Under the pieces are notes generated by a model. The model saw nothing but the letters and a program-made list of their open reading frames with translations. It ran no database searches and was not told the origin of the DNA. Position numbers and translations under genes: made by a program. From Microthyrium microscopicum (taxonomy: Eukaryota; Ascomycota; Dothideomycetes; Microthyriales; Microthyriaceae), in NCBI GenBank assembly GCA_010405405.1, contig MU004241.1, positions 986,350 to 1,026,318 of the forward strand: a DNA stretch of 39,969 nt. The letters are read 5' to 3'. Positions 1-30,410 of this stretch are shown piece after piece (the stretch's first letter is position 1; the number at the start of each line of letters is the position of its first letter).

Positions 1-58
1 ATAAAGTCCTATATACTTATTATACTAAGAATAAGACATTATTTCTACTAAGCTATAA

Positions 59-697
59 GTAGCTTAGTTATTATTTTAATTATATAGTGCTACTTATTTC
101 TTTATATAACTAATAGAGTTAGAAATTTATTTACTATTCTTAGTCTAATAGAAATTAATATTAAAGACTAGTTATAGTATACTAAAGAAGTCTTTTCTAC
201 CTTATACTACTTAAAGAATACTATTAACTTCTTTTTTTCTTAAATTATCTTTCCTATAAAAATAAGAGAGTTTTCTTTAAAAATTTCTATATCTAATACT
301 ATTATATAGCTATTAAACTAGGTAAAAATGCTTAAGTAATATAGTAAAGAAAAGACTACCTTAAGCTCTATTTATAAGTAGGTAGATTAGATACTTAGAG
401 TAATAACTAATACCTATAGTAGTAAATCTATTTAGCGTATCTAATTACACCTATAGTATACTCTAAAAATTCTATATAAAGCTTTATAACCCTTAATACT
501 ATATATTGTCTAGGGGTTATTACTATGTATAGGAATATTACTTATTAGTAACCTTTATTATATTTAAATATATCTAGCACCTAGATAAAGTAGTAATAAT
601 ATTAAAAATAGATAAGGTAATAGTACCTTTAATAGTATATTAATTAATTATAATAATAAGAGTAATAGTAAGTAGTATATAAATTAAGCTAAAAGTA
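59..697. repeat. Dispersed/tandem repeat family R1, unit 1
   Basis: First and fullest unit of a direct repeat of roughly 640 bp. It begins at the TAGTTATTATTTTAATTAT block (about 65), which recurs at 701 and 1419. Its second half (from about 508) recurs near 1226 and 1935. The differences from unit 2 that I checked are C/T or A/G transitions. No domain was recognised and no reading frame is convincing. It could be an LTR or another non-coding part of a transposon, but no terminal motif supports a class. Confidence 0.7.
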
Positions 698-1415
698 GCC
701 TAGTTATTATTTTAATTATATAATACTACTTACTTCTTTATATAATTAGTAAAGTTAGAGATTTATCTACTATTCTTAATCTAATAGAGATTAATATTAA
801 AAACTAGTTATAGTATACTAAAGAAGTTTTTCTTACCCTACGCTACTTAAAGAGTGCTATTAACTTTTTTCTTTCTTAAATTATTTTTTCTATAGGAATA
901 AGAGAGTTTTCTTTAAAAATTTCTATATTTAGTACTATTATATAGTCTATTAAGCTAAACTTAAAAGGCTTTTAGTAGCGTTCCTAACTCTAATAGTTTA
1001 TATACGTATTAGATTTAAAGTCTAAAGAATTTACTAAGTAGAATATATTTTTAGTATAATTCTACTTAATAATAAAAAGAAATATTTAATATACTATAAG
1101 CCTTTATAAATACTTTTAATAAGCTATTAAACTAAGTAAGGATACTTAAGCAATATAATAAAGGAAAAACTACTTTAAGCTCTATCTATAAATAAGTAGA
1201 TTAGATGCTTAAAGTAATAATAGTTATCTAAGAATTATTACTACGTATAAGAATATTACTTACTAGTAACCTTTATTATATCTAGATATATCTAATACCT
1301 AGATAAAGTAATAATGATATTAAGAATAAGTAAAGTAATAGTACTTTTAATAGTATATTAGTTAACTATAATAATAAGAGTAATAGTAAATAGTATATAA
1401 ATTAAGCTAAAAGTA
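698..1415. repeat. Repeat family R1, unit 2 with an insertion
   Basis: Second unit, direct orientation, 636 bp downstream of unit 1. It is about 80 bp longer overall. The extra material lies near 965-1110, where sequence absent from unit 1 separates the two halves of the A block; a short duplicated trace of the junction (TATTAAGCTA against AAGCTATTAAACTA) sits at the edges. The second half (1226-1410) matches 508-690 closely. Confidence 0.65.
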
Positions 1416-1563
1416 GCCTAGTTATTATTTTAATTATATAGTACTACTTACTCCTTTATATAACTAGTAGAGTTAAAGATTTATTTGCTATTCCTAGTTT
1501 AATAGAGATACTATTATATAGCTATTAAACTAGGTAAGAATACTTAAGCGATATAGTAAAGGC
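1416..1563. repeat. Repeat family R1, unit 3, internally deleted
   Basis: Starts with the same block as units 1 and 2. After AATAGAGAT (near 1510) it jumps directly to ACTATTATATAGCTATTAAAC, so roughly 130 bp present in unit 1 are missing. It ends near 1563, where a different repeat (R2) begins. Confidence 0.6.
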
Positions 1564-1569
1564 ATTAAG

Positions 1570-1688
1570 TAAATAAATATTTCTTTAGTTATTTTAGTAG
1601 CGTCTTATATAAGCTCTTCTTCTAAAATAATAAAAGAGGTTTCCTTATAATAAATATAGTTAAAGAACGCTATATAAAGCTAAGGTTA
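1570..1688. repeat. Repeat R2, copy 1
   Basis: About 119 bp containing ATTTTAGTAGCGTCTTATAT and AACGCTATATAAAGCTA. The same segment recurs exactly 540 bp downstream at 2110-2228 in direct orientation. Most differences are transitions; one short A/T slippage lies near the left edge. Function unknown. Confidence 0.65.
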
Positions 1689-1814
1689 TATTTAAGGACT
1701 TAGTAATTACTAAAGTAGTTACTAAGGAGTAATAACTTTTCCTTTTTAGTTAAGATAGCGCTATTTTTATATCTTATATCCTACTAAGTAAGTAGTATAT
1801 TACCTTTATAATTA

Positions 1815-2100
1815 AATTAAGTAATTATATTAATAAATGCATTTATACTCCTAACTAGTTAAAGAAGTAGCTAAGGACTACCTTAAGCTCTATTTATAAG
1901 TAAATAGATTAGATGCTTAAAGTAATAATAGTTATCTAAAGGTCATTACTATATATAAAAATATTGCTTACTAGTAACCTCTATTATATCTAGATATATT
2001 TAGTACCTAGATAAAGTAGTAATAATATTAAGAGTAAATAAGGTAATAGCACTTTTAGTAGTATATTAGTTAACTATAATAATAAGAGTAATAGTAAATA
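1815..2100. repeat. Repeat R1 partial copy (D and B blocks)
   Basis: AAGTAATTATATTAATAAAT at about 1815 opens a block that recurs near 2797. It contains the ACTACCTTAAGCTCTATTTA subrepeat also seen at about 355, 1170 and 2857. It is followed from about 1935 by a third copy of the second half of R1, ending at the AATAATAAGAGTAATAGTAA motif near 2100. Direct orientation. Confidence 0.6.
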
Positions 2101-2109
2101 GACTAAATT

Positions 2110-2228
2110 TTTTTAAATATTTCCTTAAATATTTTAGTAGCGTCTTATATAAGCTCTTCCTTTAGGATAAAGAAAGGGGTTCCTTTATAATAGATATAGT
2201 TAAAAAACGCTATATAAAGCTAGGATTA
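2110..2228. repeat. Repeat R2, copy 2
   Basis: Direct repeat of 1570-1688 at an offset of exactly 540 bp. As with copy 1 it abuts an R1 block, which suggests the two blocks were duplicated together before mutation. Confidence 0.65.
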
Positions 2229-2399
2229 AGGGTTTAGTATTTTTATAATTCTTATATTAGTAAGGACTTAGTAATCTAATAAATATTATTAAGAAAAGTA
2301 GCTATTCTTAAGTTAATAGAAGTATACTAATTATTAAAGTAAGAAAGCTTATATTATAATAATAAGTATTTTCCTAGTCTAAGACTAATAAATAAATTA

Positions 2400-2790
2400 A
2401 GTAATAGAGAAGCTTCTATAAAGAAAAGCAAAATATCTAATAATATTAGAGTTATTAACCTACTAACGTATTAAAAGTAGTTTAATTATAATACTATAAG
2501 GAATTCTTATAAGCTAGGTACTAGTTTTAGTAATAAAGTAATTAAAGAATTTTAAAACTCTAAAGTATCTATTAGTAAGTAATACTTCTAAAATATATAT
2601 TAGCTAATTACTAATAAATCTTATATACCTATAAGTTATACCTTTTAAGTTAAGAACTATAGAGGTTAGTTTATTAACTAAAATAGTTAAAAAGTTTATA
2701 TATTCTATATTCTTTACTACTAAGTTTATCTTTTATTAACTTTACTTTCCTTTTAAGTATTTAGTATATATTCTTATAAAGTTAAAGTAT
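2400..2790 (+). pseudogene. Possible coding relic, unidentified
   Basis: From about 2400 to 2790 one frame (codon start at 2451) reads as a plausible protein in which only TAA/TAG interrupt, for example the stretch NSYKLGTSFSNKVIKEF. It is in the same register as the relic at 3063-4930, but an R1 fragment (2797-2925) lies between them. No family is recognised. The evidence is the texture of the frame only, so this is a weak call; it could be chance in AT-rich DNA. Confidence 0.3.
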
Positions 2791-2796
2791 AAAACT

Positions 2797-2925
2797 AAGT
2801 AATTATATTAATAAATACGTTTATACTCCTAACTTATTAAAGAAGTAGCTAAGGACTACCTTAACTCTATTTATAAGTAAATAGATTAAATACCTAGAGT
2901 AGTTATTTATAGTAATAATAATTAT
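2797..2925. repeat. Repeat R1, short partial copy
   Basis: Repeats the D block of 1815-1935 (AAGTAATTATATTAATAAAT, then CTAAGGACTACCTTAACTCT) in direct orientation. The second half of R1 does not follow here. Its edges mark one end of the repeat mosaic that fills the first 2.9 kb. Confidence 0.6.
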
Positions 2926-3062
2926 ATTTACCTTAACTCTAATATAATTAAGATTATTTAAGTACTAGACTTATTTTTAATATTATTACCTAAAGCTTTA
3001 GTAGTAGGATTATAGCCTTTAAATATTCTTATAGTAAGTATAGTAGTTAATACTTTAAAAGC

Positions 3063-4930
3063 TTAAGTAAGTAATAATAAAAGATAACTTAATAATTAGA
3101 TAACTTCTTAACGTCCTTAGCTTAGCTAGCTTTTATAAGTATATAAAGAAATTACAACTATTAAGTATGCTCTTAAAAGTAAAAAAATAAACTCTTACTA
3201 AAATATTTAGGCTCTTATTATAGATATAATAAAGCTAAGATAGCTAGTTATTAATAGATTACTAAATAAGAATAATAATCTATAGATAATAGGTAGTTAT
3301 AGCTTATACTAAATATAAAAACTTTATATTAATTCCCTAAGTATAGAATTAAAATTAAGTAATAACTTCTTATTAGAGAAGTAGCTATTATTAACATTAG
3401 CTAAGCTATATATATCCTTTACTTATATAATTATCTAGCTAGCTTTATTCTTTTACTTTTTTAGATAGGTTAGTTTTATATAAATATAAAATAAGAACTA
3501 AACTAATTTATATATATTAATAGTACTATAATTACTTTAATAGGATATTATAAACTTAAGTAGTAGCTTACTAGGATAGAAAGCTACCCTACTAATATTA
3601 ATATTAACTAATATATAAAAAGTTATAAGTTAAGTACTAGTATAGATAATAAGTAGTTATAGCTTATACTAAATATAAAAACTTTATATTAATTCTCTAA
3701 GTATAGAATTAGAGTTAGGTAGTAACTTCTTATTAGAGGAGTAGCTATTATTAATATTAGCTAAGCTATATATATTCTTTACTTGTATAACTACTTAGTT
3801 AGCTTTATTCTTTTACTCTTTTAGATAGGTTAGTTTTACGTAAATGCGAAATAAGAACTAAGCTAATCTATATATATTAGTAGTACTATAATTACTCTAA
3901 TAGAATATTATAAGCTTAAGTAGTAGCCTACTAGGGTAAAAAGCTACCCTACTAACGTTAATATTAACTAATATATAGAAAGTTATAAGTTAAGTACTAG
4001 TATAGTATCCTTAAAGAACTAATAAGCTACTATTAAGATAAAGCTATTATAGATTAGCTCTAATAAATAAAAAGACTTTTTATAGTCTAATTATAGCTAT
4101 ATTTATATTAGATTAATAAAAGTAGTTAAAGAATATATTAAGAAGTTAAAGAAGAGTTAGCTAATTATTATAGCTAGCATTAGATACTATCTTAATTAAT
4201 ATAAACTAAATAGCTACTAAGATATCTATTATAAAGAGTAATAGCTAAAAGTAATCTCTTAGCTTCTTATAACTCTATTATAATTTACTAACTTAATAAA
4301 GAATTCTTTTAAAATAAGCTATCTATTTTTCTTTTATAATATAATATAAAGTTAGTTAAACGTTTTACTTAATTTACCTAAAAGAGACTATCTTATTAGT
4401 AAGTACTTCCTAGTATTAAGAATCTATATCCTTAACTACTCTACTAAGTTAACTATAGTTTAGAAATAGTAAACTTACCTAGTTAACTTCTAATCTAAGA
4501 AAGCATACTTAAAATGCTTCTTTCTATTTACTAATAATAAATATATTACTAAATTACTTAATATCTATAACTCTAATAGTATAAAAGTTATATAGCTATA
4601 CTAAATATTTATATATATACTATCTATATACTATATATAACTAAAACTATTTATTAAGTATATATAAGTAAAAAATAGTACTTACTTATATAAAATTATA
4701 TAGCTACTTCTATATCTTAATAAATATAAGCCTATAAAAAATAGTCTTACTATATATAATAGTATAATATTAATTAAATAGTAAATAAAATAAAGCTTTA
4801 TAACTTCTTTACGTTCTTATAATAAATAGGTATATAAATATATATAGTTTACTATTAATTTAAAAAGGTAAGAGTTGCTTAGAACCTTATTTATTACGTT
4901 TATTATAAAGAAAAAGACTATAAAGTAGGT
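3063..4930 (+). pseudogene. RIP-degraded protein-coding relic with a duplicated 120-codon segment
   Basis: One plus-strand frame (codon start at 3063, 3282 or 4098) can be followed for about 620 codons with only TAA/TAG interruptions, as expected if CAA, CAG and TGG were converted. A direct duplication of exactly 120 codons (3281-4000) lies in this frame and does not disturb it. The frame continues into a basic stretch near 4110 (VVKEYIKKLKKS) and on to a region including LPKRDYLISKYFLVLRIY near 4385. Met, His, Cys and Trp are almost missing, which fits RIP. I do not recognise the family. The 5' end is uncertain because ATG codons have been erased, and the 3' end fades near 4930. Confidence 0.65.
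3281..4000. repeat. 360-bp tandem duplication, two copies
   Basis: Copy 1 is 3281-3640 and copy 2 is 3641-4000, with no indel between them. I counted 32 differences in 360 positions (8.9%); every one is C/T or A/G, with no transversion. 360 bp is 120 codons, so the surrounding frame is kept. The pattern says the duplication was young when RIP acted and that the copies were then mutated at partly different sites. Confidence 0.95.
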
Positions 4931-5207
4931 ATATATCTTATATAATTAATTTAAAAAAACTAAGTAAGTATAAAAAGTAAAGTAAAAAAGAGAAATAAGT
5001 TACTTACGCTTAACTATTAATTTTTCTTATTCTCTATATAAAGAGCATCTATAATATAAGAAAATAAGGTTTTTTTTACTTTATACGTAAGGTTTAAAGT
5101 CTTAAGTAGCTATAAAGAAATATACTTTTTTAAGTATAGTAGTACTTTAGTATTACGCTATATAAAAGCTATTAAAATAACTTTAATAGGCACTTTTTTT
5201 ATACTTA

Positions 5208-5310
5208 AGCTAAGTAGAAAGTAAAGTAAAAAGAAAAAAAGAAGGTTAAATTAAGTTAAAGCTAAAGAAAAGATTTAGAAAGAGTACTATTTTAATTAAG
5301 AAAAAAAGGT
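5208..5310 (+). other. Purine-rich tract
   Basis: About 100 bases dominated by A and G on the plus strand (runs such as AAAAAGAAAAAAAGAAGG). It would encode a Lys/Glu/Arg-rich segment and lies upstream of the 63-bp minisatellite. It may be the basic N-terminal part of the same dead gene; no proof. Confidence 0.45.
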
Positions 5311-5387
5311 TATTATACCTTAATAACTACTTTAATAACTACTAAATCTTTAGATACTTACTATTCTAATATAGTTAAGAATAATCT

Positions 5388-5789
5388 TTGTTTAAAGTTT
5401 ATTTCTTTACTACTTTAATTTTTATATTCTTTAACTTAATAAGCTTTTTATATTTTACTATAATAATTATAATAGCTATAGAGGTAAATTCTATAATAGT
5501 TAAGGTAAAGATAGGTTTAATAAAGAAAAAGATAATAGCTATAGAGATAAATTCTATAGTAATTAAGATAGAGGTAAGTTTAATAAAAAAGGAGGTAGTA
5601 GCTATAAAGGCAAATTCTATAGTAATTAAGGCGAAAATAGATTTAATAAAAAAGAAGATAATAGCTATAAAGGTAAATTCTATAGTAATTAATATAGAAG
5701 TAGGTTTAATAGAGAAGAAGGTAATAGTTATTATTATTATTAATTACGCTTTCTTTAGTATTTGCTTAGTAGCTCTAATAATAGCCTAG
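5388..5789 (+). pseudogene. Residual open frame over a 21-residue repeat (not a functional gene)
   Basis: A 133-codon frame without stops, beginning at TTG rather than ATG. The first part is hydrophobic (Phe/Ile-rich). From about residue 30 it is four tandem 21-residue units of the type IIAIEINSIVIKIEVSLIKKE, with alternating hydrophobic and charged residues. The frame most likely stays open because the repeat unit had no Gln or Trp codon, so RIP had nothing to turn into a stop. The protein lacks Trp, His and Gln, and the flanks are as decayed as elsewhere. The ancestral unit probably had Val, Ala and Asp where Ile, Thr and Asn now stand. The opposite strand also reads as low complexity, so the coding strand is inferred. 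Confidence 0.5.
5474..5730. repeat. 63-bp minisatellite, four copies
   Basis: The anchor AATTCTATARTARTTAA occurs at 5487, 5550, 5613 and 5676, spaced exactly 63 bp (21 codons). The intervening sequence is TTTAATAAAGAAAAAGATAA or close variants. Differences between units are mainly transitions. Confidence 0.9.
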
Positions 5790-5904
5790 CTATATCTTTT
5801 ATCTTTATCTTTTTTCTTCTTACTACTTCTAAACTTTAATATAACTTTACTACTTTATTTATAAAGCTAACTAAAATATTAAAGGTTTTAAAATATATAG
5901 AATA

Positions 5905-6060
5905 TATAATAAAGGCAAATTCTATAGTAATTAAAGTAATAATAGAGAAGAAGATAATAATAATAAAAGTAAGTTCTATAATAGTTAAGATAAAAATATA
6001 GAAGGGCTAAGGTAGTAGCTATAGAGGCAACTTCTATAATAATAAAGGTAAAGTAGTATA
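5905..6060. repeat. Outlying degenerate copies of the 63-bp minisatellite
   Basis: The same anchor reappears at about 5918, 5972 and 6029, now at irregular spacing (54 and 57 bp) and with more substitutions. The array was therefore once longer, or was duplicated and shortened in steps of three bases. Confidence 0.7.
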
Positions 6061-7710
6061 CTAAGTACTATTATAATATCTCTAACCTTCTCTTATATAA
6101 AGTAGACCTTATAAAGAATAAAGAGTACTAAGTAGTAAATACTTAAAGTACTTTTCTAGACGTTTTTAGACTTCTAGGGTGCTTTAGAAGCATAAGTAAG
6201 GAAAGGTAACGTAGCTATATATAATAATAATAGCCTCTAAATATAGCGTTCTTTAGAAAAGCTAGGTAATAGTAGCTTTCCTTTATAGTAATATATATTA
6301 AGTTAAAAGTATTACTTTTATACTAAATATAGCTCCTATACTAATAAAAGAGTTTAGTAGTTTAATATCGCTATAATTACTATCCTAGATAGGTTAGTTA
6401 GAATATAGATAATAAAGCTAGTTAAAGCTAGTTATAAAGCCTTACTTAAGTATCTTAAGGAGTAATAGTATTACTATTAACTTTATAAATTCTAACTTTA
6501 TATTTTAGTAGTATAAGTCTATTATAGGATAATATAAGCTAAATAAATAGAGTAAGCATATAATTACTTTAATTAAGGATACTCTTTAGTAGTATATTAA
6601 TTATTTATAATAATAAGAATAATAGTAAGGAACTAGTTTTTAGGTAGTAGGCTTAAAATAAGGGTAATCTATTTAGAAATAATTAAGACTAATAAGTACG
6701 CAAGTAATAACGTAAGTAATAATAAATATTAAAGTAGAGCATAATAGGCGTTAAGTTAATCTCTATTGCTATTAAGAGTAGTTATATATTTAAAATCTTC
6801 TTTAATATCCTACTTAATAGTTTAAAAATAGTAGCCTTATTACTAGATATATAATTACTTACTTTAAGAACCTTATCTAGTATTTATAATTTTCTATAGC
6901 ATATATATCCTATTAGCGTATAACTAAAGTCTTAACCTTTATAATAAATAGTAAGCTACTCTTATATAAATACTAAGAAGTAATAATTATCTTTATAGCT
7001 AGCATCTTAGAGGCTAGTAGAATAGAAACTATAAGGGCGTTTAGCTATAATAATAAGTATTATATATAGAAGGCCTATAGTAATATTATTAATAGAATAG
7101 AGCCCTTTATATAGTTTATAAAGTTAAGGAAGTTTAATATTAAGGGCTATTTTGTATTATCCTTCTAATATATTATCTTAGTAAGTAATAACATTAATAA
7201 AGTATCTTTTATACTTAGAGTACTAAAGCATAAAATATTATTTAGATAGAGTAGCTAGCCTAGTTTTAACTTTATTCTTAACTTTAGAAATTGCTTTAAT
7301 AATATAAATTTATAATAAAAGTAACTACGTAGTAGATATAAAATAAAGTAGGCATAAGATAATAGTTATCTATATGCTAATCTACTTTATAAGTAAATAT
7401 AGGTTTATATATACTTAAAAGTCTAGGAATATTTATAAAGACTTAATTTAAACTACTAGAGCTAACTTTAATATATTCTATAGTATAATAAGTTATAGTA
7501 TAAGTATATAATATTCTATAGATTAGGTTTATAGAGCGCATAGTAGTAGTGCTTACTATAATATTACTAGGCTTCTAAATAATAAATAAAGATATTAGAA
7601 TAGTAACTTTAAAGTAAAATTCTATTATTTATATAAATTACTATTATTACTAATAAGTCTTTTACTTCTTATTTAATATACTATTTCTCTTTTATAAGAT
7701 TTTATTAAGG
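6061..7710. other. Stretch without a recognisable feature
   Basis: RIP-saturated DNA. A short coding-like run occurs on the plus strand near 6420-6600 (for example ASYKALLKYLKE), but no frame can be followed far and no repeat copy was found. I see nothing else to support a call. Confidence 0.5.
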
Positions 7711-7713
7711 AAA

Positions 7714-7828
7714 ACATTACGTTAATGCTATTTTGTTATTAATATAATACTACCTTAAGTATTATAAGTCGTTACTTAAACTTATTTATAAAGGAGGAGG
7801 AATCTATACTCTAGTAGTATACTACTAC
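7714..7828. repeat. Repeat R3, copy 1
   Basis: About 115 bp containing TTAATATAATACTACCTTAAG and GTTACTTAAACTTATTTA. It recurs in direct orientation about 295 bp downstream (8009-8124). The copy ends in a purine run (AAAGGAGGAGG) and the 16-nt palindrome at 7812-7827. Confidence 0.7.
7812..7827. repeat. 16-nt perfect palindrome
   Basis: TAGTAGTATACTACTA is its own reverse complement (two 8-bp arms, no spacer). It sits at the right end of repeat R3 copy 1, next to an ATT microsatellite. Role unknown. Confidence 0.7.
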
Positions 7829-7830
7829 GC

Positions 7831-7850
7831 ATTATTATTATTATTATTAT
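7831..7850. repeat. ATT microsatellite
   Basis: About six and a half uninterrupted ATT units directly after the palindrome at 7812-7827. Confidence 0.8.
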
Positions 7851-7990
7851 ATAATTAATATATACTTATAGTATAATGCTTATAAGAATACTATTAAGGT
7901 AATATAATAACGTTTGCCTTAGTATTAGCGTTATAATTACTCTTCTATAGTACTACCCTAAGGCTATTCTACCTCTATAGTAGCTATACG

Positions 7991-8132
7991 TTAACTCTCT
8001 AAAAAATAATATTATATTAATACTATTTTATTATTAATATAATACTACCTTAAGTTCTATAAGTTATTACTTAAACTTATTTAAAGATAAAGAGGAGCCT
8101 ATACCTTAGTAGTAGAAAATTAAGAGAGTTAA
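7991..8132. repeat. Repeat R3, copy 2, flanked by a 10-bp inverted pair
   Basis: The core (8009-8124) repeats 7714-7828. It is bracketed by TTAACTCTCT at 7991-8000 and its exact reverse complement AGAGAGTTAA at 8123-8132, giving a 142-bp unit that resembles a miniature inverted-repeat element. Copy 1 lacks the left inverted end and no target-site duplication is visible, so the brackets may be coincidental. Confidence 0.45.
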
Positions 8133-8519
8133 GAAAAGGGTTTAGCTCTAGCGCTCTAGCGCTTTAATATAGCACTAATAAACGTAAGCTAAAGTATATT
8201 AAATAAGGTATTAATAAGTCTAAAAATCTTAATAACCTTCTACTTTAGTATATAATTTAGCTTAATTTTAGTCGTAGGTTTATTATGTATTATAGCTACT
8301 ATAAATAGCTACTTATTTAATTTAAATAATAATAATAGGTGCTTAAATATAATATAGGATATAATAGCTATAGGTATAAGTAAAAAGGAGTATAGTAGAG
8401 TATAAGGAACGTATTAAAAATATTAGTAGAAAATAGAGTACATAAGAATTAAGTTTAGTTTAATAATAGTAATATTCTAGTAAGTTTTAGTTTAGTTACG
8501 ACTTTAGAAATGTTTAGCC

Positions 8520-9735
8520 CTAAACCTATTAATAGTACTATCTAATGTTCTTCTCTATTTAGCTACTAAAAGCTTTTATAATATTATTATTAAGCTACTA
8601 AAGAATAATAACTTCTAAATCTTCTAAAAAAGCTCTTCTTACTAGCTACTAAAGACAAAAACTACTTTTCTTTATATTACTATTAATAAAAAGTTATAAT
8701 TAAGCTTATTACGCTAGTTCTATTACTTAAAGAATTAAACGCTTTCTAGTTAGTAGCTATTAAGTTTACTACTAAGAACTAGCTTTATTATAGTAAATTA
8801 AGCTATAGAAAATTCTTTACTCTACTTATAGCTTTAGGTCTTAATATTATAATATATAATAAATGCTTCTATTAGATATATATTTAGTATAAGAAAGCTA
8901 AATATACTAGGTAAGGCGCTTAGTTATTATATCTTTTTAATAATATAATATAAAAAGATACTTAAACCTCTAGAGTCTTCTATCCTTATTAATAGCTTTT
9001 ATATCTTATTTTAGGAGTACTCTAAATAATAAATACTATCTCTTTAACGTATACTAGGATATTATAATTCTAAATTAATAAAATATAGTAACTATTTTAA
9101 AGATAAGACTTTATAAGCTATACTTATACTAGCTATAGAGATAAATTAGTAATATTATAATACTTATAAATTAATAATTAAACTAGATACTAGCTACTAC
9201 TATATATAGTAAGCTATACTTTTTAAGTTTCTATCTTATACTAATATACTAGAAAATTAGTTATAAATATAGTTAATTAGTTCTACTATATCTATAGCGT
9301 TAAGTAAAAAAAGTATTACTATCTATAGTAGAATAAGAATTAATTAGTTACTAAAGCTAACGTAATTATTAATTAAGAGCTAGCTAAAAGACAATAAGTA
9401 GCACTAGTAGAGCGGATTTAATATATAAAAAAGGTAAAATAGAAGCTAATTAACTAATATTAATATACTTATTTATAACGACTTAAGAAGATTAGGCGTT
9501 AACGTCTAGAATGTACTATACTAAAAGAAACCTAGCTTTATACCTACTAGAATATAAAGAATAGATTTAAAAGCTCTAACTATAAAGTCCTACTTACTTA
9601 AAAATAAAGAAATTAAAGATATTCTAATAAGACTATAAATTTTATTAGGCTTATATTAAACTCTTATCCTTACTTCTTTTAAATAGCGTATTATCTATAT
9701 CTATATCTTATTCTTTCTCCTTATTTATTTAAAAA
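8520..9735 (+). pseudogene. RIP-degraded protein-coding relic, unidentified
   Basis: One plus-strand frame (codon starts at 8522, 8582, 8648 and 9422) runs about 400 codons interrupted only by TAA/TAG. Readable stretches include KFTTKNQLYYSKLSYRKFFT, IALGLNIIIYNKCFY and, near 9440-9510, a strongly basic run with several positions that now read TAA or CGT. The composition (rich in Leu, Lys, Arg, Tyr and former Gln/Trp) suggests a soluble, nucleic-acid-binding protein such as a transposon product. I do not recognise the family. Neither end can be fixed, because ATG is erased and terminal stops cannot be told from RIP stops. Confidence 0.6.
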
Positions 9736-10900
9736 AAGATACCTTATATCTTTATATAATAACTATCTTCTTATTATAAGCTTTACTATTTATAGCTAAG
9801 AAGAAAAGATTTCTACTATATTTTAACTAAACTATAATATAGTATATATTATATAGATAGCTATAGATTTAGCGCCCTATAAATATCTTAATATATATTA
9901 AAATACTATGCTTATATCTCTTTCTCTATTATTAATGCTAATACTAATAGCTTAATTGCTTTTAGAAAAACGCTAAGGCTCTACTTAAGGATCTAGTTTT
10001 TACGTACTTATATAGTAATAACTTGCTTATCTGCTTCTAAGACTATATCTTACTAAGGAGAATTTAATAATATAATATTTATAAATTAGCTAGTAGTCTA
10101 TTTAGTAGAATTAAGGTTTTATTAATAAGTAGTATAGGAGTCTAGGTAGACTTTATACTTAAGTTTAGTTTAATTAGTTTCTAAGGAAGATTCTATATTT
10201 AAGTCTAGAGTATTATTATTATTCTTTTTTAACTTAGGTATTAATTTAGTTAGTATAATAGCTTTAAGGAGTTAAGAAGTAGTCTAGGATTCTAAGTATT
10301 TATAATTTATATTTTTTAGATAGGAGCGTACTTTAAATAAGAGCACTAAGAGAGTTAAGTATAGTTTTTAGTTATTTTAAAGACTATAGTATATAGTTTA
10401 TAGTAGAATTAAATAAAAGATATAATAGTATTATAATAAGTAGTAATAAAGCTATTAATTAACTAAGCAAGTTATTATAAATAAAGAAAATTATTAGAAA
10501 CTAAGATAATAAAGATATATAATGAAGGTAAATAGCTACTATTTTAATTATTATTATAAGTAGTAGATAATTATTAGGTAACGTTTAGGTCTAGTAACTA
10601 GATAAGCTCTTTATAAAAGCTTAAGGTAAAGTATAGAGAAGATATATATATTAGAAGTAAAGTAAAGAAGTAAAATAAGTTTAAATTACTATAAGTACTA
10701 AAGAAAAAGAATTTAAAATTAATAGCCTATTATTTTATTTAAAGAATTACGAATTAAAAGCTATTAAAAAGAATAAATAATTTTACTTTTTATATATATA
10801 CTATTCTATATAAATATATATTCCTAAAGTTCCTAAATTAATTTATTCTATTATATTCTATATTATATTAATTATTATATTTAAGTCTATAACTAATACT
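9736..10900. other. Stretch without a recognisable feature
   Basis: No followable frame, repeat copy or array was found here. The part near 10640-10760 is A/G-rich and could be coding debris. The right end is close to the C-terminus of the minus-strand transposase relic. Confidence 0.5.
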
Positions 10901-10959
10901 AATAAAACTAAATTGCTTAGAAGATAATATTATAATAATAATAATAATACTTAGTAGTT

Positions 10960-13900
10960 TATAAAATATATAACTCTTAGGTAATAAAATATTTATTAGA
11001 CCTCTATTTTATTATATATCTTTACTATTATTACTACTATCTTCTTTACTATTATTACTAGTCTCTTCTTTATTATCTTTATTAGTCTCCTATTTACCTT
11101 TTCTACTACTATTTAGTTTATCCTTTCTATTTTCTATTTCTTTTTTATTACTATACTTTATTTTCTTTATCTTATTAATAAGCTTTTTAAGATAAACTTT
11201 AACCTAAGCTTTATAGAGCTTTCTATTCTTTCTCTCTAGGGCTTTATATCTTACTATAGTTTTAACCTTAGCTACCTTAATTCCTTATTTACTAAAAGTA
11301 ACTAGGTTATATATTCTAGTATAATTATTATAATTAGGGTATAGATTTAACTAATAGTAATTAAAATACTTTAAGTCTCTATAAGGAACTATATATATAA
11401 TAGTTAATAGTTTATTTAGTTTATATACTTTTAACTTTATAGCTAGCTTAAATAATATAAGACTTAATAGCCTATTAAACGTAAGTTTTATAGCTTTTCC
11501 TAAGATTAGTATATACTCCTAAACTAAAGCTATAAGAAATTTAGTATATCTACGCTATAATTTAAAATCTCTTATTATTTAATCTATATTATATACTATA
11601 TAAATAATAAGTAGTTATATAGGAAGTTAACCTAAAAGACTAAAATTATTATTAAGCTCTTTCTTAGATATAGGATAGGCTTAAGCTTATATAAAATTAT
11701 ATTATTAGTAATTCTTAGTTAAGACTTTACTATACTATTAATTATTATCTTTACCTTTTTGCTATTTCTATTTATAGTAAGCTATAAAGGATTATATATT
11801 ATTCTTATTATTATCTATTATATAAGTTATACTACTATATAGTGTTATAATAAGGTAACTTAGCTAGAAAGTATTAAAATATAATACTTTACTAGAGTAT
11901 ATAAAGTCTAATTTATTATTAATAAGATCTTTATCTAAGTATATTTCTTTACTCTATATATATAATAGTATTAGCTTTAGAGAAGACTAGCGCTTCTTAA
12001 AGTCTTCTTTATAACAATTAATTAACTAGCTATATAAATAATCTTTAAGGTTATTAAGCTTAGCCTATTTACTAACATTCCTAGTAAGAAGTATACTAAA
12101 TTTATAAATACTCTTATTATGTAGCTTATCTATATAATATAATTAGAGTTATAAACTATATTTAGGCGTACTTAATAGAATAATTATAGAATAAGTTTCT
12201 TTAGATATAATCTTCTTCTTAGTAATATTATAGACTTAATAGTTATAATTATTATTATTATTCTAGATTATATTCTTAATATAATTAGTAAAATAATAAA
12301 TTATCTAAACGTACTAATTAGATTAAAAGTTAGTCTATTTTACTACTAGTATAGTATATTCTTAATATAACTTTTCTATAATACTAGAACTAGTTCTATC
12401 TATAGTACTAAATATATAAATAGATAGTATAAAATAAATTAAGTTATAAAACTTAAAGAAATTAAGTCCTTTAAACCTAGCTTAAAGAGTCTTACGCTTA
12501 TATATTACTATTTTAGTATATTCTATAATTTATAAATAGACTTATATATATTTAAGTATATTCTTATTATATAACTTATAGCTAGAAAGTATAATAATAT
12601 CTATTAAAGCTTTAATAAATTTTATTATAATTAGGTCCTTTAGAATTAAGAGTAAAGCTAAGGTAGCTATAAGTTACTTTAAAAGTGCTTATAATTCTAA
12701 GCTAGTCTTCTATTAAACGTTATAGTAGCCTTAAGCTATCCTTAGAAAGCCTAAATAAATAGGACACTATAAAAACTTATAATTAATTATAAACTTTACT
12801 TTTACGCTAAATATAGATTTCTTTTTTTTTTTTTCCTACTTAGTCTTTAGTATATTACTATCCTTCTTCTTAGTTTTTAGCGTTTTATAGGTATAGGTCT
12901 TTTATATAGCTCTATTATTCTTTATTTTAGCTACTAGTATTATAGATATTACTAGTACTCTCTTTTCTAAAATAATTTAAGCTATCTAGTCTATTACTTA
13001 CTTAACTAGTCTATTTAAAAAGAATATATATAGTAGATTAAAAGTAATTACTATATAAATATTTAATAAAGAATAATTTTAAGCAAAATTATAAATTTTA
13101 TAAATATAGTCTTTACCTTTAGCATTATTAATAGTAATAAGCTATTTAGTATACTCTCTTTTCTAATTAGCGTAATAAAATACTTCCTACTTTAATATAT
13201 TCTCTTATAAAGTTATATAAGTCTAATAGGCCTATTTACTAGTAAGGTCTTATTAATATAGTTATAGTATTAAGTAAATAGGATAGTAATATTTAGACTA
13301 GATACCTATAATTATAATAAGCTCTTTATAATCTATGCTTATATAAGTAAGAATTAAAAGATACCTTTAAAACTAGCTATTAGTAATTACTATAACGTAA
13401 CTACTCTTAAGGACTATTCTAAGTTTTATATTTTATTAGTAAATAGCTCTATAATACTTAAATATATAGTATTAAACCTTTAAATATAATATCTATAGCG
13501 TTATAAAATATCTTAAGTTTACTATTAATATCTATACTTTTTAGCCTAGAGAGTACTATAATAAGGAGAAATCCTAGTCTTCCTATAGCTCTTCTAATAC
13601 TTCCTAATAAATTAAAAATAGTTATATAGTAAGCCTATATATAGTTATTACTACGTTATTTAGATATTATAGTCTTATTTAACCTCTAATAGATAGAAAT
13701 AAGCATAATACCTAAATTAACCTTATTTTATAATTCTTACTACCTTTTTACTAATTAAGTATTAGTATAGATATACTTACTATTTTTATTCTTTTATATT
13801 ATAAGCTTAAAGTAGAGATTTTTAGTAAAAGGCCTATAAAAGATAAAGAATTTAATAATTTCTAAGATACTCTAAAAATATACCTTAACTTTACTACTTA

Positions 13901-14640
13901 GAAGATTTTTAATACTTTTTATTTTATTATATAATAGCTTCTTAAGTATTACTTCCTATTAGCTAGGTATAAAGCCTTTAAGGTTATTAATATTTTCTAT
14001 TAGTAATTTATAATTCTTTACTTTCTAACTAAGTAAGTTATATATTTTACTTCTAAAGGCTATTCCCTAAAATAACTTATTTACTTTATTCTTTAATATA
14101 CTATTAGAAACTACCTAACTAATAAACTTTAGTTCTTCCTTTAGTTAACTTTATAGCTTTACTCCTCTATAAAGCTTTTCTCTTCCTAAATAATAATATT
14201 AGTACTTTATCTTAATAATATCTTAAGGTAGTAGCTTATGCTTATTAATCTAGTTATAGCTTTTATTAGTTTTATAGGCTAGTATAGGTATACTTACTAG
14301 ATATTTTAGATTTTATTATAAGTATATAATAACTTTATTAACTATATATTATATACTACTTTTAGACTTTTAAGACTTATTAGCCTTATCTATCCTATCT
14401 TATAAATTACGTTTATACTATATTAGAATAGTAACTCTTTCTATAGCTTTAAGGGTAGCTAAAGATAAAGGTATAGTAAAAGGCGTAATTATCTTATCTT
14501 TTATTATAAGTATTTCATACGTAGTATAATTATAACTAGGATAAGTAGTAGATCTTATACTAGTAGAGAGACTATTTATAAAGGGTTCTCTTATTAAAGT
14601 TTTTATTACTAGTATTAATCTTTATACTTAATTAAAGAGC
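10960..14640 (-). pseudogene. Plavaka-type DNA transposase, RIP-inactivated
   Basis: Minus-strand relic of about 1,200 codons, a normal length for Plavaka transposases, which are DNA-transposon enzymes of fungi. Family landmarks appear in order: a VKVYF.SILEII segment near 13850; IYTNT followed shortly by two adjacent stops at 13737-13742, where the family has WW; then NKTIISK at about 13660-13679, matching the family's SDKT..S.H.GD block with the Asp codon now AAT (13677-13679); IAIFNLLGSIRRAIG near 13575-13620 (family: ITIGNL...IRR). Further on come LNFFKFYNLIYFI near 12430-12470 (family: NFPKxHxLxHxx) and ending blocks near 11270-11300 (LVTFSKQGIKVAKVKTIVR). The tail is Lys/Asn/Ser-rich (10990-11200). 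The frame shifts once between about 12700 and 13560, from an indel or intron. No terminal inverted repeats were identified. The identification rests on motif recall. Confidence 0.87.
12822..12834. repeat. T13 homopolymer
   Basis: Thirteen consecutive T on the plus strand, which would be Lys codons in the minus-strand transposase relic. It lies in the interval where that relic changes frame, so slippage here is a simple candidate cause. Confidence 0.8.
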
Positions 14641-14699
14641 CTTTAAAGGCGATTATAAGGATTTATAATAAAGAGGAACTATATATTATTTAGAAAACT

Positions 14700-15240
14700 T
14701 AATATACCTATATTTAAGAAGATTAGTCTATAAGAATAATAATATAACTTATTTAGGTTAAATATATACTAGGAGATTAAAATATATAAGTTAAATATAT
14801 CTATATTTAATTACTTTTCTTTATTATTATACGTAATATTAAAAAGGTTACGTTAGTATATTAACTTCTATACCTATTTTGTCCTTATTAACTTTTAAAG
14901 ATATAAGTATATTCTTAGTATATAAGTAGTAAATCTAGTATTAAATTTATACTAGTAATAACTAGCGTTTAATTTTGCTTAGTATTCTAAAGCTTAAGTA
15001 ATAGAGTTAACTCTTAAGAATATTACCTAATAATATTTTATTATATATATAATATACCTTTACTTACTAAATATTTCTAAACGTACTAGATATTTCTAAA
15101 TATTCTAGATAGCTAGTACTAAGACTAAGTAAAGGTGCTAGCTAATCTTATATAATTAATAGGTTATAATATTACGCTAGAAACGCGTTGCGTAACTTTA
15201 TATTATTAATTACTAGCTTAGTAAGTTAATTTTTTTAGTA
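14700..15240. other. Intergenic stretch with TCTAGA-like motifs and a CpG-dense spot
   Basis: This lies between the N-terminal end of the transposase relic and the next minus-strand coding debris. It contains near-repeats of GATATTTCTAAA (15080-15110) and, at 15174-15196, a cluster of CpG (ACGCTAGAAACGCGTTGCGT) that is dense for this window. Promoter DNA for the transposase is expected here, but no element is recognisable. Confidence 0.4.
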
Positions 15241-15389
15241 ATAGTACTATTCTATCTATCTTTCTAGTCTAACTTCCTTATATATCCTTTTTTATTAAAT
15301 TTTCTTATCTATATAATTTTTTTATCTTAAATCCTTTTTTTGTTTAGTACTAACTATTATACTATTTAAGTTAGTTAATTAATTAGCTA

Positions 15390-16330
15390 AACGAACCTTA
15401 CTTTAAACTTAAACCTTTTTACTATCTTTTTCCTTATTATTATTCCTTACTATTAATCTTTACTAACTTTACCTTCTTTATTAGCTTTATTAGCTTTAAA
15501 TTCTTTATTCTTAGGTTTAAAACTATAAAGTAAGGTTAGTTTTATAAGATCTCTAATTACTTCTAATTCTTTAAGTATAATAGTTTTAATCTCCTTATAT
15601 ATATTTAGCTTTTTCTTACGATAAGAAACTACTCTATTAAAGTTAAGAATATTAAGTTTCTCTAAATTCTAATAAGAGTAATTATTAGTAAATAGTATAT
15701 GCTATATATAGCTATTATTAATAAAATACTTTAGCAATCTACTAAGTATAAATTATTTAAACTCCTTCTATCTCTTAGTACTAAGGGCTATTATAGTACT
15801 ATAAAGCTTTAAGTTACTAAAGAATAAGGATAAGTAGCTCTAAGATGCTATAATATTTATTTATAAGTTTTCTATAAGGAAACTAGTATAATCTTTTTAA
15901 ATAAGATTAATAAGATTCTAATTATACTTAATACTAGAGCTATTATTATAGGTAGTTATTAAAACTTAACTAAATTATAAAGGTATATCTTAATAGTCTT
16001 ACTAGGTATATATATAATTATTCTAAATATATATAGTAACCTATTTAAGTAGCTAACCTTTAGTTTTAGTATAGAGGCTAGTTTACGTAAGGTAAAGAAT
16101 AATAACTATAATATTAACGCCTTTTAATTATATCTATAGTAGAAGTTTAATTTATATAAAGGCTATAATATAGGCATTATAAGTATTAGAACTTAAACTA
16201 GTAACGTCCTTTTTAACTTTATTATCTCTAATATTTATAAATATTGCAAGTAGTATATCTTTTCTACGTTCTAAGGATAGGAAAAGCTAGCCTATAATAT
16301 ATTATAATTAGTTAAATTTAGAGTTATTAT
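15390..16330 (-). pseudogene. Minus-strand coding debris, probably a gene C-terminus
   Basis: Between 15390 and 15620 the minus strand reads a charged run in one frame (for example ELEVIRDLIKLTLLYSFKPK, then a Lys/Ala/Asn-rich part) ending in a basic segment near 15400. From 15620 to 16330 two minus frames look equally plausible, so the frame is not settled. It may be the downstream part of the relic at 16330-19270 or a separate gene. No family is recognised. Confidence 0.4.
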
Positions 16331-17601
16331 TATTAGTATATTTAAGAATTTTGTAGCCTATATTATTAAAGAGATTACAGTATAATGAATTAAATCTAAA
16401 TACTTATTTTAGTATAGTTTAGCTAAAGCTATTTACTATAGTATTATATATTAATAGTACTTAAGAACTATTACAAAACGTAGCTTTTTTATATTTAAGA
16501 TTATAGATAGGTCTAGGCTAAAATAGATCTTTAGTCTATATAATTATTTAAAGTCTATATAGAGATATAATAGCTATTATTTATAGTCTATATAATGCTA
16601 CTACTTTATTATAAATCTATAAGTTAATACCTATAAAATTTGCCTAGAAAAGCTCTTATAGAGTATTATAGTTTATAAGACTAAGAAGAGTAATTATTAA
16701 TTATAAATAATATTACTCTATATCTAGTAGTAGTTTACTATAATTAGCACTCTCTAACTTTAAGAGCTTCTTCCTACTATAATACTTTTCATTAAGAATT
16801 TAGAGGTTAAAGATATAATTAAGTAACTCTTTAGTAGCTATATCTATATTATATTCTTACTTTCCTATTACTAAGTTAATTACGCTAATTATTCTACTAG
16901 CTTAATTTACAAATTTCTTAAATAAGTATTTAAGACGTTTAATATAATAATTATAAATATCTTTAAAGTCTTAACGTTTAGCATTTATATAGAATTACTA
17001 TAAATAGTAAGCACTATACTATTTAGTAAGTAATACTATTTTAGTATCTAGGATATTAGTACTATAGTTATTTATATTATCTATATTCTGCTATTATATA
17101 CTAGGACCTTAATTTTAGTAAACTTAAGTTTATACCTCTTTTAATTTCCTTAAGGCAATAGATTTCTCTATCTTAATTAAGTATCCTTAGATAGTAAAAA
17201 ATCATAAAAAGTTTATAGAATTAACTTCTATATAGATATTTATATACTTAGTAATAAGGTTATCTAATTATATATTTATAATATATATAGCTAAAATCTT
17301 TATCTTAAAATTAGAATAAAATATTATAAAGGTAATTAATATTACTATTATAGCTTTTATAGTTTTAGTCTTACTATATCTTAGCCTAGCATAGTAAATA
17401 TTAAGTCTACCCTTACTACCTTTTAAGAAAATAATATTAATAAACTCTTTTTAATCCTTATAAAGAGCCTTTATAATACTAATCTATTCTATCTTTTTTA
17501 TAAGATTTTAAATCTCTTCTAAGGTAATTCTAAAGTTAGTCTTTAATAATTATATAAAAGTAGCTATACCTAGTTTTATAAAAGTGCTTAGCGACTAGTA
17601 C

Positions 17602-17636
17602 TAATTATTATTAATATTAGTATTATTAATATTAGT

Positions 17637-17667
<31 letters not shown>

Positions 17668-17800
17668 GTATTACTATTATTAGTATTATTAGTATTTTTT
17701 ATAGGCATAATCTTATTATCTAACTATTTATTAGAATTAGAAATATCTTTAGGTATATCTTTGTAGGTATTATTATTATTATTATTATTATTATTAGCGT
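17602..17800. repeat. ATT/GTA trinucleotide tracts
   Basis: Two blocks of imperfect ATT repeats (about 17602-17696 and 17768-17796). On the minus strand they are runs of AAT/AAC/ACT, that is poly-Asn with Thr and Ser, in frame with the surrounding relic. Confidence 0.85.
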
Positions 17801-17811
17801 TATTAGCTGTA

Positions 17812-17913
17812 TTTAATTACTAACCCTATTTGTCGTTAGCTACTTTTAATTACTAACCCTATTTATTATTAGCTACTTTTAATTACTAACTCTATTCGCT
17901 ATTAGCTTTAGTA
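17812..17913. repeat. 33-bp tandem repeat, three copies
   Basis: The anchor AATTAC occurs at 17815, 17848 and 17881, exactly 33 bp apart. On the minus strand each unit reads VANxKxGxxLK with stops at former Gln/Trp positions; the plus strand also reads with one stop per unit. Substitutions are mainly transitions. Confidence 0.88.
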
Positions 17914-17961
17914 ACCTCTAGCTTAGTCTATTAATCCTAAGCTTAAGACTTTATAAAGGGG

Positions 17962-18361
17962 AAGATACTATTATTAGTAGAATAGAGAGGCGCTACTATA
18001 GTAGTATCTAAAGATTCTATATTAATATTGTCTTAGATAGAGAAGAAGAAAAGATAAGAAGTGCTATTATTAATAAAATAGAGGAGCGCTACTATAATAG
18101 TATCTAGGAATTCTATATTAATATTATCTTAGACAAAGAAAAAGGAAGGATAAGAAGTACTATTATTATTAAGATAAAGGGGTACTACTATAGTAGTATC
18201 TAAGGATTCTATATTAATATTATCTTAAATAAAGGGATAAAGAGGCTAAGAGGTACTATTATTAATAGAATAGAGGAGCACTACTATAGTAGTATCTAGA
18301 GATTCTATATTAACGTTATCTTAAATAAAGAAAGAAAGAGAATAAGAGGTACTATTATTAT
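17962..18361. repeat. 96-bp tandem repeat, about four copies
   Basis: CTACTATARTAGTATCTARR starts at 17993, 18089, 18185 and 18281, exactly 96 bp apart (32 codons). The minus strand reads units of the type QDNINIESLDTTIV...LY with one former Gln codon per unit. The plus strand is also nearly open, so the coding strand is inferred from the neighbouring relic. Confidence 0.92.
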
Positions 18362-19475
18362 TAGCTTTAAATTCCTATTTAAACTAAGATTTAGTTATAT
18401 AGTTAGATAAATCTAAATTAAGTAGCTTATTAATTAGCTTTTATGAAGTAGAACTACTACTTATTTCCTTTAAAGTTTCTTTAGTCTAACTAGTTAAAGG
18501 TTTTAACGTATTGTTTTTAATATTACTAAAGGATAAGCTACTTAATAAAGCATCCTCTTATATCTTATTAACCTTTATAGTTAACTTTTTTAGCGCGTTA
18601 GTATCTATTAATACTTTTTTAGTATGCTTTAATATAATACTAAACTCTACCTTTCTAAAGAATAAGGATAAGGTATAGATAGTAAGAATCTTCTCTAATA
18701 AAGGCTAACGTTCTAAGGAGTCTAGATATAAATTAAGTACTATAGTAAAGTAGTAATCTAGGTTATATTCTTTCTATCTTAACTATACCTAGTTAAAACT
18801 ATTTATTTAGTATATAATAGGCTTATTTAAATTATATATATATATCTTAACCTCTAGCCCTTTTAATTTAAAAAAAGCCTTATATAGATTCTTAATTAAT
18901 TAGCTATAGTCTAAAAAAATAATAACTTCTTTAGGGATTTAGAATAAAGAGAATTAAGCATTATTAGTATATTTATTATTAGGTATAATAGAAGGATAAT
19001 ATATAATTATAAGTACGTTATAAGTAGCTTAAATATTATAGTCTTAGTTAATAACTTTAGTAGTAAATTAAGAGCCCTTAAGTTTAGCTTCTAGCTTAAG
19101 TTAGATTATATAGACGTTACCTTCTTAAAAATAAGGATATTTATATCTATTTACTATAGTATAAAAATTAAAGCTTACTAAGAATTTATAGTCTTTACCT
19201 CCTAGTATTCTAGTAGTGCGTAATATAACATTATAGGAAGCCTTATTCTACTTATATGCCTAATAAAGCTATTCTACTAAATTTATACTTTAGGCTATAA
19301 ATAGATATAGGACTAAAAGATAGACTATACGTAACAAACTTATAATTCTATTATTCTTTACTTTTATAAGATTATTATAATTATTTAGAAAGGTAATATA
19401 ACTCTTCTATAGGCTAAAGACGCTATTTATAAATAGATAATTAATATTAGTAAGAATAATATTTAGATTAGTTTA

Positions 19476-19862
19476 TGTACCTTAAGAGATTAGCTAAGAA
19501 AAATTCTTTTCTATAAGTATAGCTAGGCTAGTATTAATCCTAAAGAACTAAAAGACTATAGGGTACTAATTCTAAATAATATATTAGAGATAATAAAGAA
19601 ATAGGTTAAATTTAGTATTTTTATTACTAACTATTAAATTACTAATTATAGTAGAGTAGACTTAAAAAGAGTTATTTAATAAGTTAGGATATATCTTAAT
19701 AATAAGTATAGTTATATAGCCTATAGCTAATATACTTCTATAGTATTTAATGTCTTAATTAATCTTATAAGCTAATTAGATAAGTTACTTCTTTAAGATA
19801 ACTATAAGAAACTTAATAATTATTTAGTCTATCTTTTTCTTCTTTATAATTAAATTATCTAG
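19476..19862 (+). pseudogene. Coding relic, unidentified (part 1)
   Basis: A plus-strand frame (codon start 19500) reads about 125 codons with only TAA/TAG breaks, for example INPKELKDYRVLILNNILEI and VKFSIFITNYQITNYSRVDL. It begins about 200 bp from the divergent relic at 16330-19270. The following 600 bp do not hold the frame. No family is recognised. Confidence 0.5.
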
Positions 19863-20454
19863 TAAGAAGTAGATAGTTTTAACTATTAGAATTATAATAT
19901 TTTCCTATATATTATTTTTATTCTTATTAACTTTAAAAGTATTTCTCTTATCTCTAAGATATAGGTAAATAGTTAAGGTTAATATAAACTAGGTAACCTA
20001 TTTATTATTTTTTATTATAAAGAATTACGCTTTAATATTAAAAACTATAGCTTATTAACGCTTCTTTTTTAATCTATGTATATATTTAAGCTTACTAGTA
20101 GTACTATCTTAATTAACTTTATTATTAATACTATTACCTAAGTGTTAATTTACTTTATTAATTAAATTATTTCTACTAAGAGCTACCTTTAGACTTTTTT
20201 TTAGCATATCTTCTAGATAAGGCTTATTTAAATATACTTATAAGTTATAAATCTATTAAATTAAGAGCTTACTATTAGATAGATTTACTATAAGATTATA
20301 AATAGTATATTAAGGATTCTTAAGATTTATTTAAGACGTTAGTATAAAGGTATATTTAGAAGCTTCTAAACTATTTTAGACTTTTGCTTTACCTTTATCC
20401 TTAGTCTTAGGATTTTATTTACTTAAGTCTAAAAATATAGATAAAAAATTCTCT

Positions 20455-20840
20455 TTAGCTAGGTAGGTAGAGATAGCTATAGAATCTAGTCTATATAAGT
20501 AATTAGCTAAGAATAAAGAAATAAATTTCTTTAAACTTATATTTTAATAGCTTTAGAATTATTTAGCTTACTATTTTTATAAGAAGTATAAGTTTTATAT
20601 TAATTAGAAAGAAGTTTTAGGATTATAATAGCTAGATAGCTAAAGATCTTAATAAGAATTTTGTCTTTACTTATATCTTAGTTATAAATTTAGCTATTAT
20701 AATTATATACTAATTACTAAGTATATAAAGCGTTATAAGTAGTTATGCTTATAATAAGTAGAGTAAAAGCTAAGAAAAAGATAGAAAATATAAAGAATTT
20801 AGGTAGTATTTTTTTTAAGGAAGAAGAAGTATTAAAAAAA
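20455..20840 (+). pseudogene. Coding relic, unidentified (part 2)
   Basis: A different plus-strand register (codon start 20461) reads as basic, Tyr-rich protein, for example VEIAIESSLYK, then a run rich in former Gln/Trp, Lys and Tyr up to about 20840. It may belong with 19476-19862 after an intron or indel. No family is recognised. Confidence 0.45.
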
Positions 20841-20849
20841 GAAGATAAA

Positions 20850-23180: not shown

Positions 23181-23186
23181 ATTTTA

Positions 23187-30260: not shown

Positions 30261-30410
30261 ACTTAAAACACCCTAAGCTAATTTTTAAGAAGTTTAAGGA
30301 AGAGTAAAGTAATACTTAAAATATAAATAAAATTAAGAGTAAGAGTAAGAACTATAATCCTTTAGAATAATTAAGTATAAACTAATTATTTTATAAATAT
30401 AGAGCTATAG

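What the first reader, a model, noticed from the sequence alone, without database searches (positions are those of the whole stretch)
3281..4000. Indel-free 360-bp tandem duplication whose 32 differences are all transitions
By direct alignment I count 32 C/T or A/G differences, no transversions and no gaps in 360 positions. The duplication is exactly 120 codons and in frame. It is a clean within-window record of RIP on a linked tandem duplication inside a gene.
Basis: seen in the sequence. Interest (0 to 1): 0.7.

Follow-up and report, generated by a model that had tools for sequence, protein, structure and literature searches.

The report
RIP-mutated tandem repeat in giant transposon
Two side-by-side 360-letter copies differ only by C-to-T type changes because they sit inside a roughly 43,000-letter jumping element that appears to have been mutated along its length by a fungal genome-defence system, so the pair is an ordinary sample of a much larger record.

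Summary
In detail: 3281-3640 and 3641-4000 differ at 32 of 360 sites, all transitions, no gaps. RIP is the likely process, but this is not a local record of a linked pair. The window is the inside of one ~43.4 kb transposon; the pair recurs whole in four other copies and in part in a fifth. Window against one other copy: 3682 transitions, 4 transversions over 39,978 columns. Its 360-column blocks average 33.4 differences and 103 of 111 are transition-only, so 32 is typical. None of 105 variable sites separates first from second units across loci: the duplication predates dispersal, and the visible mutations followed it. Only 3 of 32 differences are CpA, 18 are CpT, because CpA is nearly exhausted. 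The element has 5'-CATCG..CGATG-3' inverted ends, shares 2-bp target duplications with short relatives (11 of 12 insertions) and holds a sub-threshold Plavaka transposase match: probably a giant Plavaka-type DNA transposon. All 14 strong tandem arrays in the window have periods divisible by three, which hints at former coding sequence.

The parts
3281..3640 (.). first unit of the 360-bp tandem duplication
3641..4000 (.). second unit of the 360-bp tandem duplication (repeat match runs on to 4005)
1..39969 (.). interior of a ~43.4 kb RIP-mutated transposon (about C12:984845-1028261); both ends lie outside the window beyond stretches that read N
13473..13919 (-). remnant matching the Plavaka transposase profile PF18759 (18.5 bits in a long translation, 21.9 in a shorter one; cut-off 26.3)
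   Evidence: weaker matches at the same place in two other copies (C7 14.7 bits, E 0.019; C12:622k 11.2 bits, E 0.21)
24512..25213 (.). 108-bp tandem array in the same element, period a multiple of 3
17961..18363 (.). 96/192-bp tandem array in the same element, period a multiple of 3
5469..5731 (.). 63/126-bp tandem array in the same element, period a multiple of 3
35010..35362 (.). 60-bp tandem array in the same element, period a multiple of 3 (9% indels)

Best explanation
A ~43 kb DNA transposon, probably of the Plavaka type, carried an internal 360-bp tandem duplication, probably inside one of its genes. It inserted at several places in a fungal genome. [quoted passage not shown] CpA sites were mutated almost to exhaustion, so the visible differences between two copies, or between the two tandem units, are mostly leftover CpT, CpC and CpG sites hit in one and missed in the other. 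Shown here: the recurrence, the ends, the target duplications, the mutation spectrum, and independence of CpA hits among five copies over 10.8 kb. Inferred: that the agent was RIP through a RID-type methyltransferase, that the transposase was Plavaka, and that the duplication lay in a gene.
For: Pair whole at four other loci, partial at a fifth. Whole window colinear with C12:622k, 39,978 columns, 90.7%; 3682 transitions, 4 transversions, 12 gap runs of 1-6 columns. 360-column blocks of that comparison average 33.4 differences; 103 of 111 have transitions only and no gap. 0 of 105 variable sites fixed between unit classes over 11 units. CpA patterns over 5 copies fit independent hits, p = 0.92, 0.94, 0.95, 0.64, 0.91, chi-square 23 on 25 df. 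Two-copy rates CpA 0.85, CpC 0.23, CpT 0.18, CpG 0.14. Inverted ends, and 2-bp target duplications in 4 of 4 large and 7 of 8 short insertions. Plavaka profile match. Methyltransferase domains at four loci. 14 of 14 window arrays of score 100 or more with period divisible by 3.
Against: The Plavaka match is below its curated cut-off and is the only domain found besides a chance-level ArgoL1; matches in the two other copies are weak (E 0.019, 0.21); the genome-wide family search found no Plavaka, window included. CpT patterns do not fit one rate per copy (chi-square 361 on 25 df), so rates vary along the element or copies share some history. The label test for unit-specific signal ranked 2 of 32, a weak hint for it. 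No codon-phase signal at 3281-4000, and only 1 of 44 blocks of 900 bp in the window shows phase at p < 0.001. RIPCAL's authors doubt that CpT changes reflect RIP in S. nodorum (passage). RID identity was not tested beyond the domain.
Confidence: 0.86

Rival explanations
1. The tandem pair itself triggered RIP as a linked duplication in this one place.
For: Both units carry their own transitions (unit 1 has T/A at 24 of the 32, unit 2 at 8). Linked repeats are good RIP targets in Neurospora (recalled). The unit-label test ranked 2 of 32.
Against: The pair sits at the same place in other copies; no inherited unit difference in 105 variable sites; divergence equal to the rest of the element; [quoted passage not shown] crassa, though the same passage reports a 275-bp S. 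nodorum repeat with strong CpA changes (PMC2621366).
Confidence: 0.07
2. Slow deamination of methylated cytosines over a long time, without RIP.
For: All changes in the pair are transitions; the genome holds methyltransferase domains at four loci.
Against: Ordinary mutations hardly accumulated (4 transversions in 40 kb), and the strongest context is CpA (0.85), not CpG (0.14, itself an underestimate).
Confidence: 0.04
3. The 43-kb copies are segmental duplications or another class of mobile element, and the Plavaka remnant is a nested passenger.
For: The Plavaka match is sub-threshold and covers ~150 residues of a 40-kb element; the genome-wide Plavaka search was empty. The Starship captain search was empty too, but its control was silent, so Starships are not excluded.
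Against: Inverted ends and 2-bp target duplications in 11 of 12 insertions resemble published PlavakaB ends (5'-CATCA..TGATG-3', 2 or 3 bp; passage in PMC12730594); short ~0.87-kb elements share the ends.
Confidence: 0.25
4. Assembly artefact.
For: Stretches of N flank the window.
Against: The two units differ at 32 sites and the duplication recurs at several loci with different site patterns.
Confidence: 0.01

Closest known systems
Repeat-induced point mutation (RIP), Neurospora type
   Same: C-to-T transitions on both strands, CpA strongest, repeat copies hit independently. CpT differences outweighing CpA ones between copies were also reported for Tad1 in N. crassa (passage in PMC2621366).
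   Different: Near-exhaustion of CpA over the whole 40-kb window (20.6% GC, CpA/TpG observed/expected 0.08); no cross or mutant was available to test dependence on RID.
PlavakaB DNA transposons (CMCT group)
   Same: Termini 5'-CATCG..CGATG-3' against published 5'-CATCA..TGATG-3'; 2-bp target duplication against published 2 or 3 bp (passages in PMC12730594); a sub-threshold Plavaka profile match.
   Different: Fifth terminal base differs; ~43 kb long; the genome shows strong RIP, whereas the passages seen report reconstructed Plavaka families from Agaricomycotina.
Enlarged CACTA/EnSpm elements
   Same: Related transposase group by the passages in PMC12730594; ends beginning CA, short target duplications.
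   Different: A review passage cites 16-20 kb in Chondrus crispus as significantly enlarged (PMC6431247); this element is more than twice that.

Membership tests
RIP-mutated repeat | Repeated DNA carrying almost only C:G to T:A transitions | tested here: met
   (3682 of 3686 substitutions)
RIP-mutated repeat | CpA preference, TpA gain, CpA/TpG depletion | tested here: met
   3 of 32; consistent with near-exhaustion of CpA
RIP-mutated repeat | RID-type methyltransferase in the genome | tested here: inconclusive
   methyltransferase domains at four loci; taking C3:734k (696-aa ORF) as RID rests on a recalled motif
RIP-mutated repeat | Mutation occurs in the sexual cycle | not testable with these tools
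   needs crosses
PlavakaB DNA transposon | Plavaka transposase | tested here: inconclusive
   PF18759 21.9 bits, E 1.2e-4, cut-off 26.3; genome-wide family search empty
PlavakaB DNA transposon | Termini 5'-CATCA..TGATG-3' | tested here: inconclusive
   four of five bases agree, CATCG..CGATG
PlavakaB DNA transposon | 2 or 3 bp target duplication | tested here: met
   2 bp in 11 of 12 insertions with both ends read
Starship | DUF3435 tyrosine recombinase (recalled) | tested here: inconclusive
   no match, but no control rang

The most novel reading that the evidence does not exclude
A giant (~43 kb), multi-gene Plavaka-type cut-and-paste transposon, with inverted ends of at least 17 bp, 2-bp target duplications and ~0.87-kb non-autonomous followers, amplified in a RIP-active fungus and was then mutated so completely that no long reading frame is left in the copies read. 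Its lost coding capacity can still be read from strong internal tandem arrays whose periods are all multiples of three.
Probability: 0.55. Interest if true: 0.5.

Novelty: new member of a known kind. Interest (0 to 1): 0.35.

Why it matters
As a claim about linked tandem duplications the finding is ordinary: the pair looks like any other stretch of its element. The element is more useful. Two copies compared over 40 kb, and five over about 11 kb, carry almost no ordinary mutations, so they give per-context RIP rates and show that CpA sites were hit independently after dispersal. If the Plavaka assignment holds, the element is larger than the related ones cited in the passages I saw, and it sits in a strongly RIP-active genome.

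Tried and rejected
Rejected: duplication in this place only; RIP differences between units inherited from before dispersal; slow CpG deamination; divergence of the pair above or below its surroundings. Led nowhere: tRNA scan (none); ORF lists (0, 0, 2 and 9 frames, none of them over 134 aa); Pfam scans with X at stops, which gave only Plavaka and a chance-level ArgoL1. Of the window's six frames two were scanned in full, all the other four over about 10,000-16,000, and two of these four also over about 1-10,000 and 16,000-31,000; the rest was not scanned. Six frames of 10 kb of the C7 copy gave nothing. The genome-wide Plavaka search was empty; the Starship search was empty with a silent control. 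Paper searches for Plavaka (8 of 9 papers listed; 15 of 388 listed) showed no title on a giant Plavaka element; some searches were used for leads only. They cover only the held open-access library. Of the papers cited I saw passages (PMC12730594, PMC6431247, PMC2621366); passages of PMC12543289 and PMC9674265 added nothing used here.

Rows dropped before counts: the first unit of the C2:459k copy (cut by N), so 11 of 12 units; C2 is also absent from the within-locus distances and the label test and from the unit contexts. The C4:1709k copy (rearranged, partly covered) was left out. Sites whose 3' neighbour differs between copies were left out. Arrays under score 100 were left out; these weaker ones include many periods not divisible by 3. 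Of the 19 right-end places, 12 were tested for target duplications with both ends.

Full report
Observation. Units 3281-3640 and 3641-4000 differ at 32 of 360 positions, all transitions, without gaps. The tandem repeat runs to 4005.

Setting. The window has 20.6% GC, CpA and TpG at 0.08 of expectation and TpA/ApT of 1.64, no ORF of 150 aa and no tRNA. Sequence of 43-49% GC lies within about 5 kb of the element on the left and next to it on the right.

The pair is not local. A search of the genome with the 720 bp found it whole at four other places, at 94, 92, 90 and 87% identity, and in part at a fifth, where the copy is broken by N. The entire window aligns to C12:622k over 39,978 columns at 90.7%. 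Of 3686 substitutions, 3682 are transitions and 4 transversions, with 12 gap runs of 1 to 6 columns. Blocks of 360 columns from that comparison have 33.4 differences on average (sd 7.0, range 16-58), and 103 of 111 have transitions only and no gap. The tandem pair, with 32, sits in the middle of this distribution, and its divergence does not differ from that of the element (Fisher p = 0.93). Other repeats in the window vary in age: 506/1224 has 31 transitions and no transversion in 286 positions, 40/676 has 29 and 4 in 270, and 506/1932 has 40 and 62 in 286.

Order of events. The duplication sits at the same place in the five copies where it is whole, so it predates dispersal. Among 11 units from 6 loci, 105 of 360 sites vary, and none is fixed between first and second units. 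First-second distances within a locus (25 to 43, mean 32.8 over five loci) resemble distances between loci (means 31.7 to 39.0). All differences among the ten units of five loci are transitions; the C2 unit has one transversion. Over five copies and 10.8 kb, CpA site patterns fit independent hits per copy (0.92, 0.94, 0.95, 0.64, 0.91; chi-square 23 on 25 df), with about 608 CpA sites inferred before those hits. CpT patterns do not fit a single rate per copy (chi-square 361), so CpT rates are averages over unequal sites, or copies share some history. The inferred ancestral sites hold far fewer CpA (608) than CpT (2062), so the element may already have been poor in CpA when it spread, or the most exposed CpA sites were hit in every copy and cannot be seen; I could not separate these. 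The label test ranked 2 of 32, a weak hint of unit-specific signal.

Contexts. The 32 differences are CpT 18, CpG 6, CpC 5, CpA 3; the five whole pairs together give CpT 78, CpG 40, CpC 29, CpA 17. The prediction fails because few CpA sites are left in either unit; two-copy rates from discordance are CpA 0.85, CpC 0.23, CpT 0.18 and CpG 0.14, the last an underestimate because sites where CpG became TpA were left out (three such doublets lie in the pair). RIPCAL reported CpT changes overshadowing CpA changes in Tad1 of N. crassa, but its authors doubt that CpT changes reflect RIP in S. nodorum (passages in PMC2621366). [quoted passage not shown] crassa, above the 360-bp unit, and a 275-bp S. 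nodorum repeat that exceeds that rule.

The element. Left boundaries coincide in five copies and right boundaries were found. Termini are 5'-CATCGTGAAAAAATTAT and its inverse, transitions allowed, flanked by equal dinucleotides: TA/TA, TA/TA, GA/GA and GA/GA in the four large copies with both ends read; 7 of 8 short relatives match too, making 11 of 12. Lengths from the coordinates are 43.4, 43.7, 43.2 and 45.0 kb, N stretches included. Three further pairs of ends, 43 to 49 kb apart, have interiors that read N where sampled. Short relatives, seven of about 0.87 kb and one of 0.71 kb, share the ends. A Pfam scan with X at stops found the Plavaka transposase profile at 13473-13919 on the minus strand, 18.5 bits in a long translation and 21.9 in a shorter one, against a cut-off of 26.3, with weak matches at the same place in two other copies (E 0.019 and 0.21). 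Published PlavakaB ends are 5'-CATCA..TGATG-3' with 2 or 3 bp target duplications (passages in PMC12730594). I read this as a Plavaka-type element with moderate confidence; the genome-wide family search was empty.

Former coding. No phase signal is left at 3281-4000, and only 1 of 44 blocks of 900 bp in the window shows one at p < 0.001. But 14 of 14 tandem arrays of score 100 or more in the window have periods divisible by three; at one in three each this is about 2 in 10 million, (1/3)^14. Six of the 14 have 2-9% indels, and weaker arrays do not follow the rule. Outside the window, 2 of 3 strong arrays in the flanking stretches tested have such periods, and in the C12:622k copy 9 of 10 do, the exception being the 110-bp array next to the left terminus. 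Among six frames of the unit, one minus-strand frame has the fewest codons that are stops in all 11 units (6 of 120, against 9 to 22). So 'in frame within a gene' is plausible, not shown.

Agent. Methyltransferase domains occur at four loci. A 696-aa ORF at C3:734k resembles RID by a motif that I recall, not by a test. One at C4:211k has a BAH domain, as DIM-2 does (recalled). That Masc1/RID homologues were identified in nearly all Pezizomycotina is stated in PMC12730594 (passage); that this genome is of that group is my inference.

Verdict. Correct observation, likely correct process, wrong setting: an ordinary piece of a very thorough RIP record in a giant transposon.

Noticed in passing
L042-L049 (C2:2669k, 3458k, 4069k; C3:13k; C5:11k, 882k; C7:713k; C14:53k): Seven elements of ~0.87 kb and one of 0.71 kb share the giant element's ends, with 2-bp target duplications in 7 of 8; likely non-autonomous followers.
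   Followed up: partly
window, 14 arrays (e.g. 3281, 5470, 17961, 24512, 35010): All 14 tandem arrays of score 100 or more have periods divisible by three.
   Followed up: partly
C12:622k copy, left subterminal region: 110-bp tandem array just inside the left end, period not divisible by three.
   Followed up: no
C7:2029-2074k copy (L016, L017, L030): Less mutated than four other copies over window 1169-12000 (CpA hit rate 0.64 against 0.91-0.95).
   Followed up: partly
window 1-2400: Partial direct repeats of different ages: 506/1224 without transversions, 40/676 with 4, 506/1932 and 1224/1932 with 62 each.
   Followed up: no
C6:1013k (L023): A shorter methyltransferase-domain gene whose translation reads PCK where the catalytic motif is usually PCQ (motif recalled).
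   Followed up: no
window 1169-12000, five copies: Inferred sites before the independent hits hold 608 CpA against 2062 CpT: the element may have been poor in CpA already when it spread, or the most exposed sites are invisible.
   Followed up: partly
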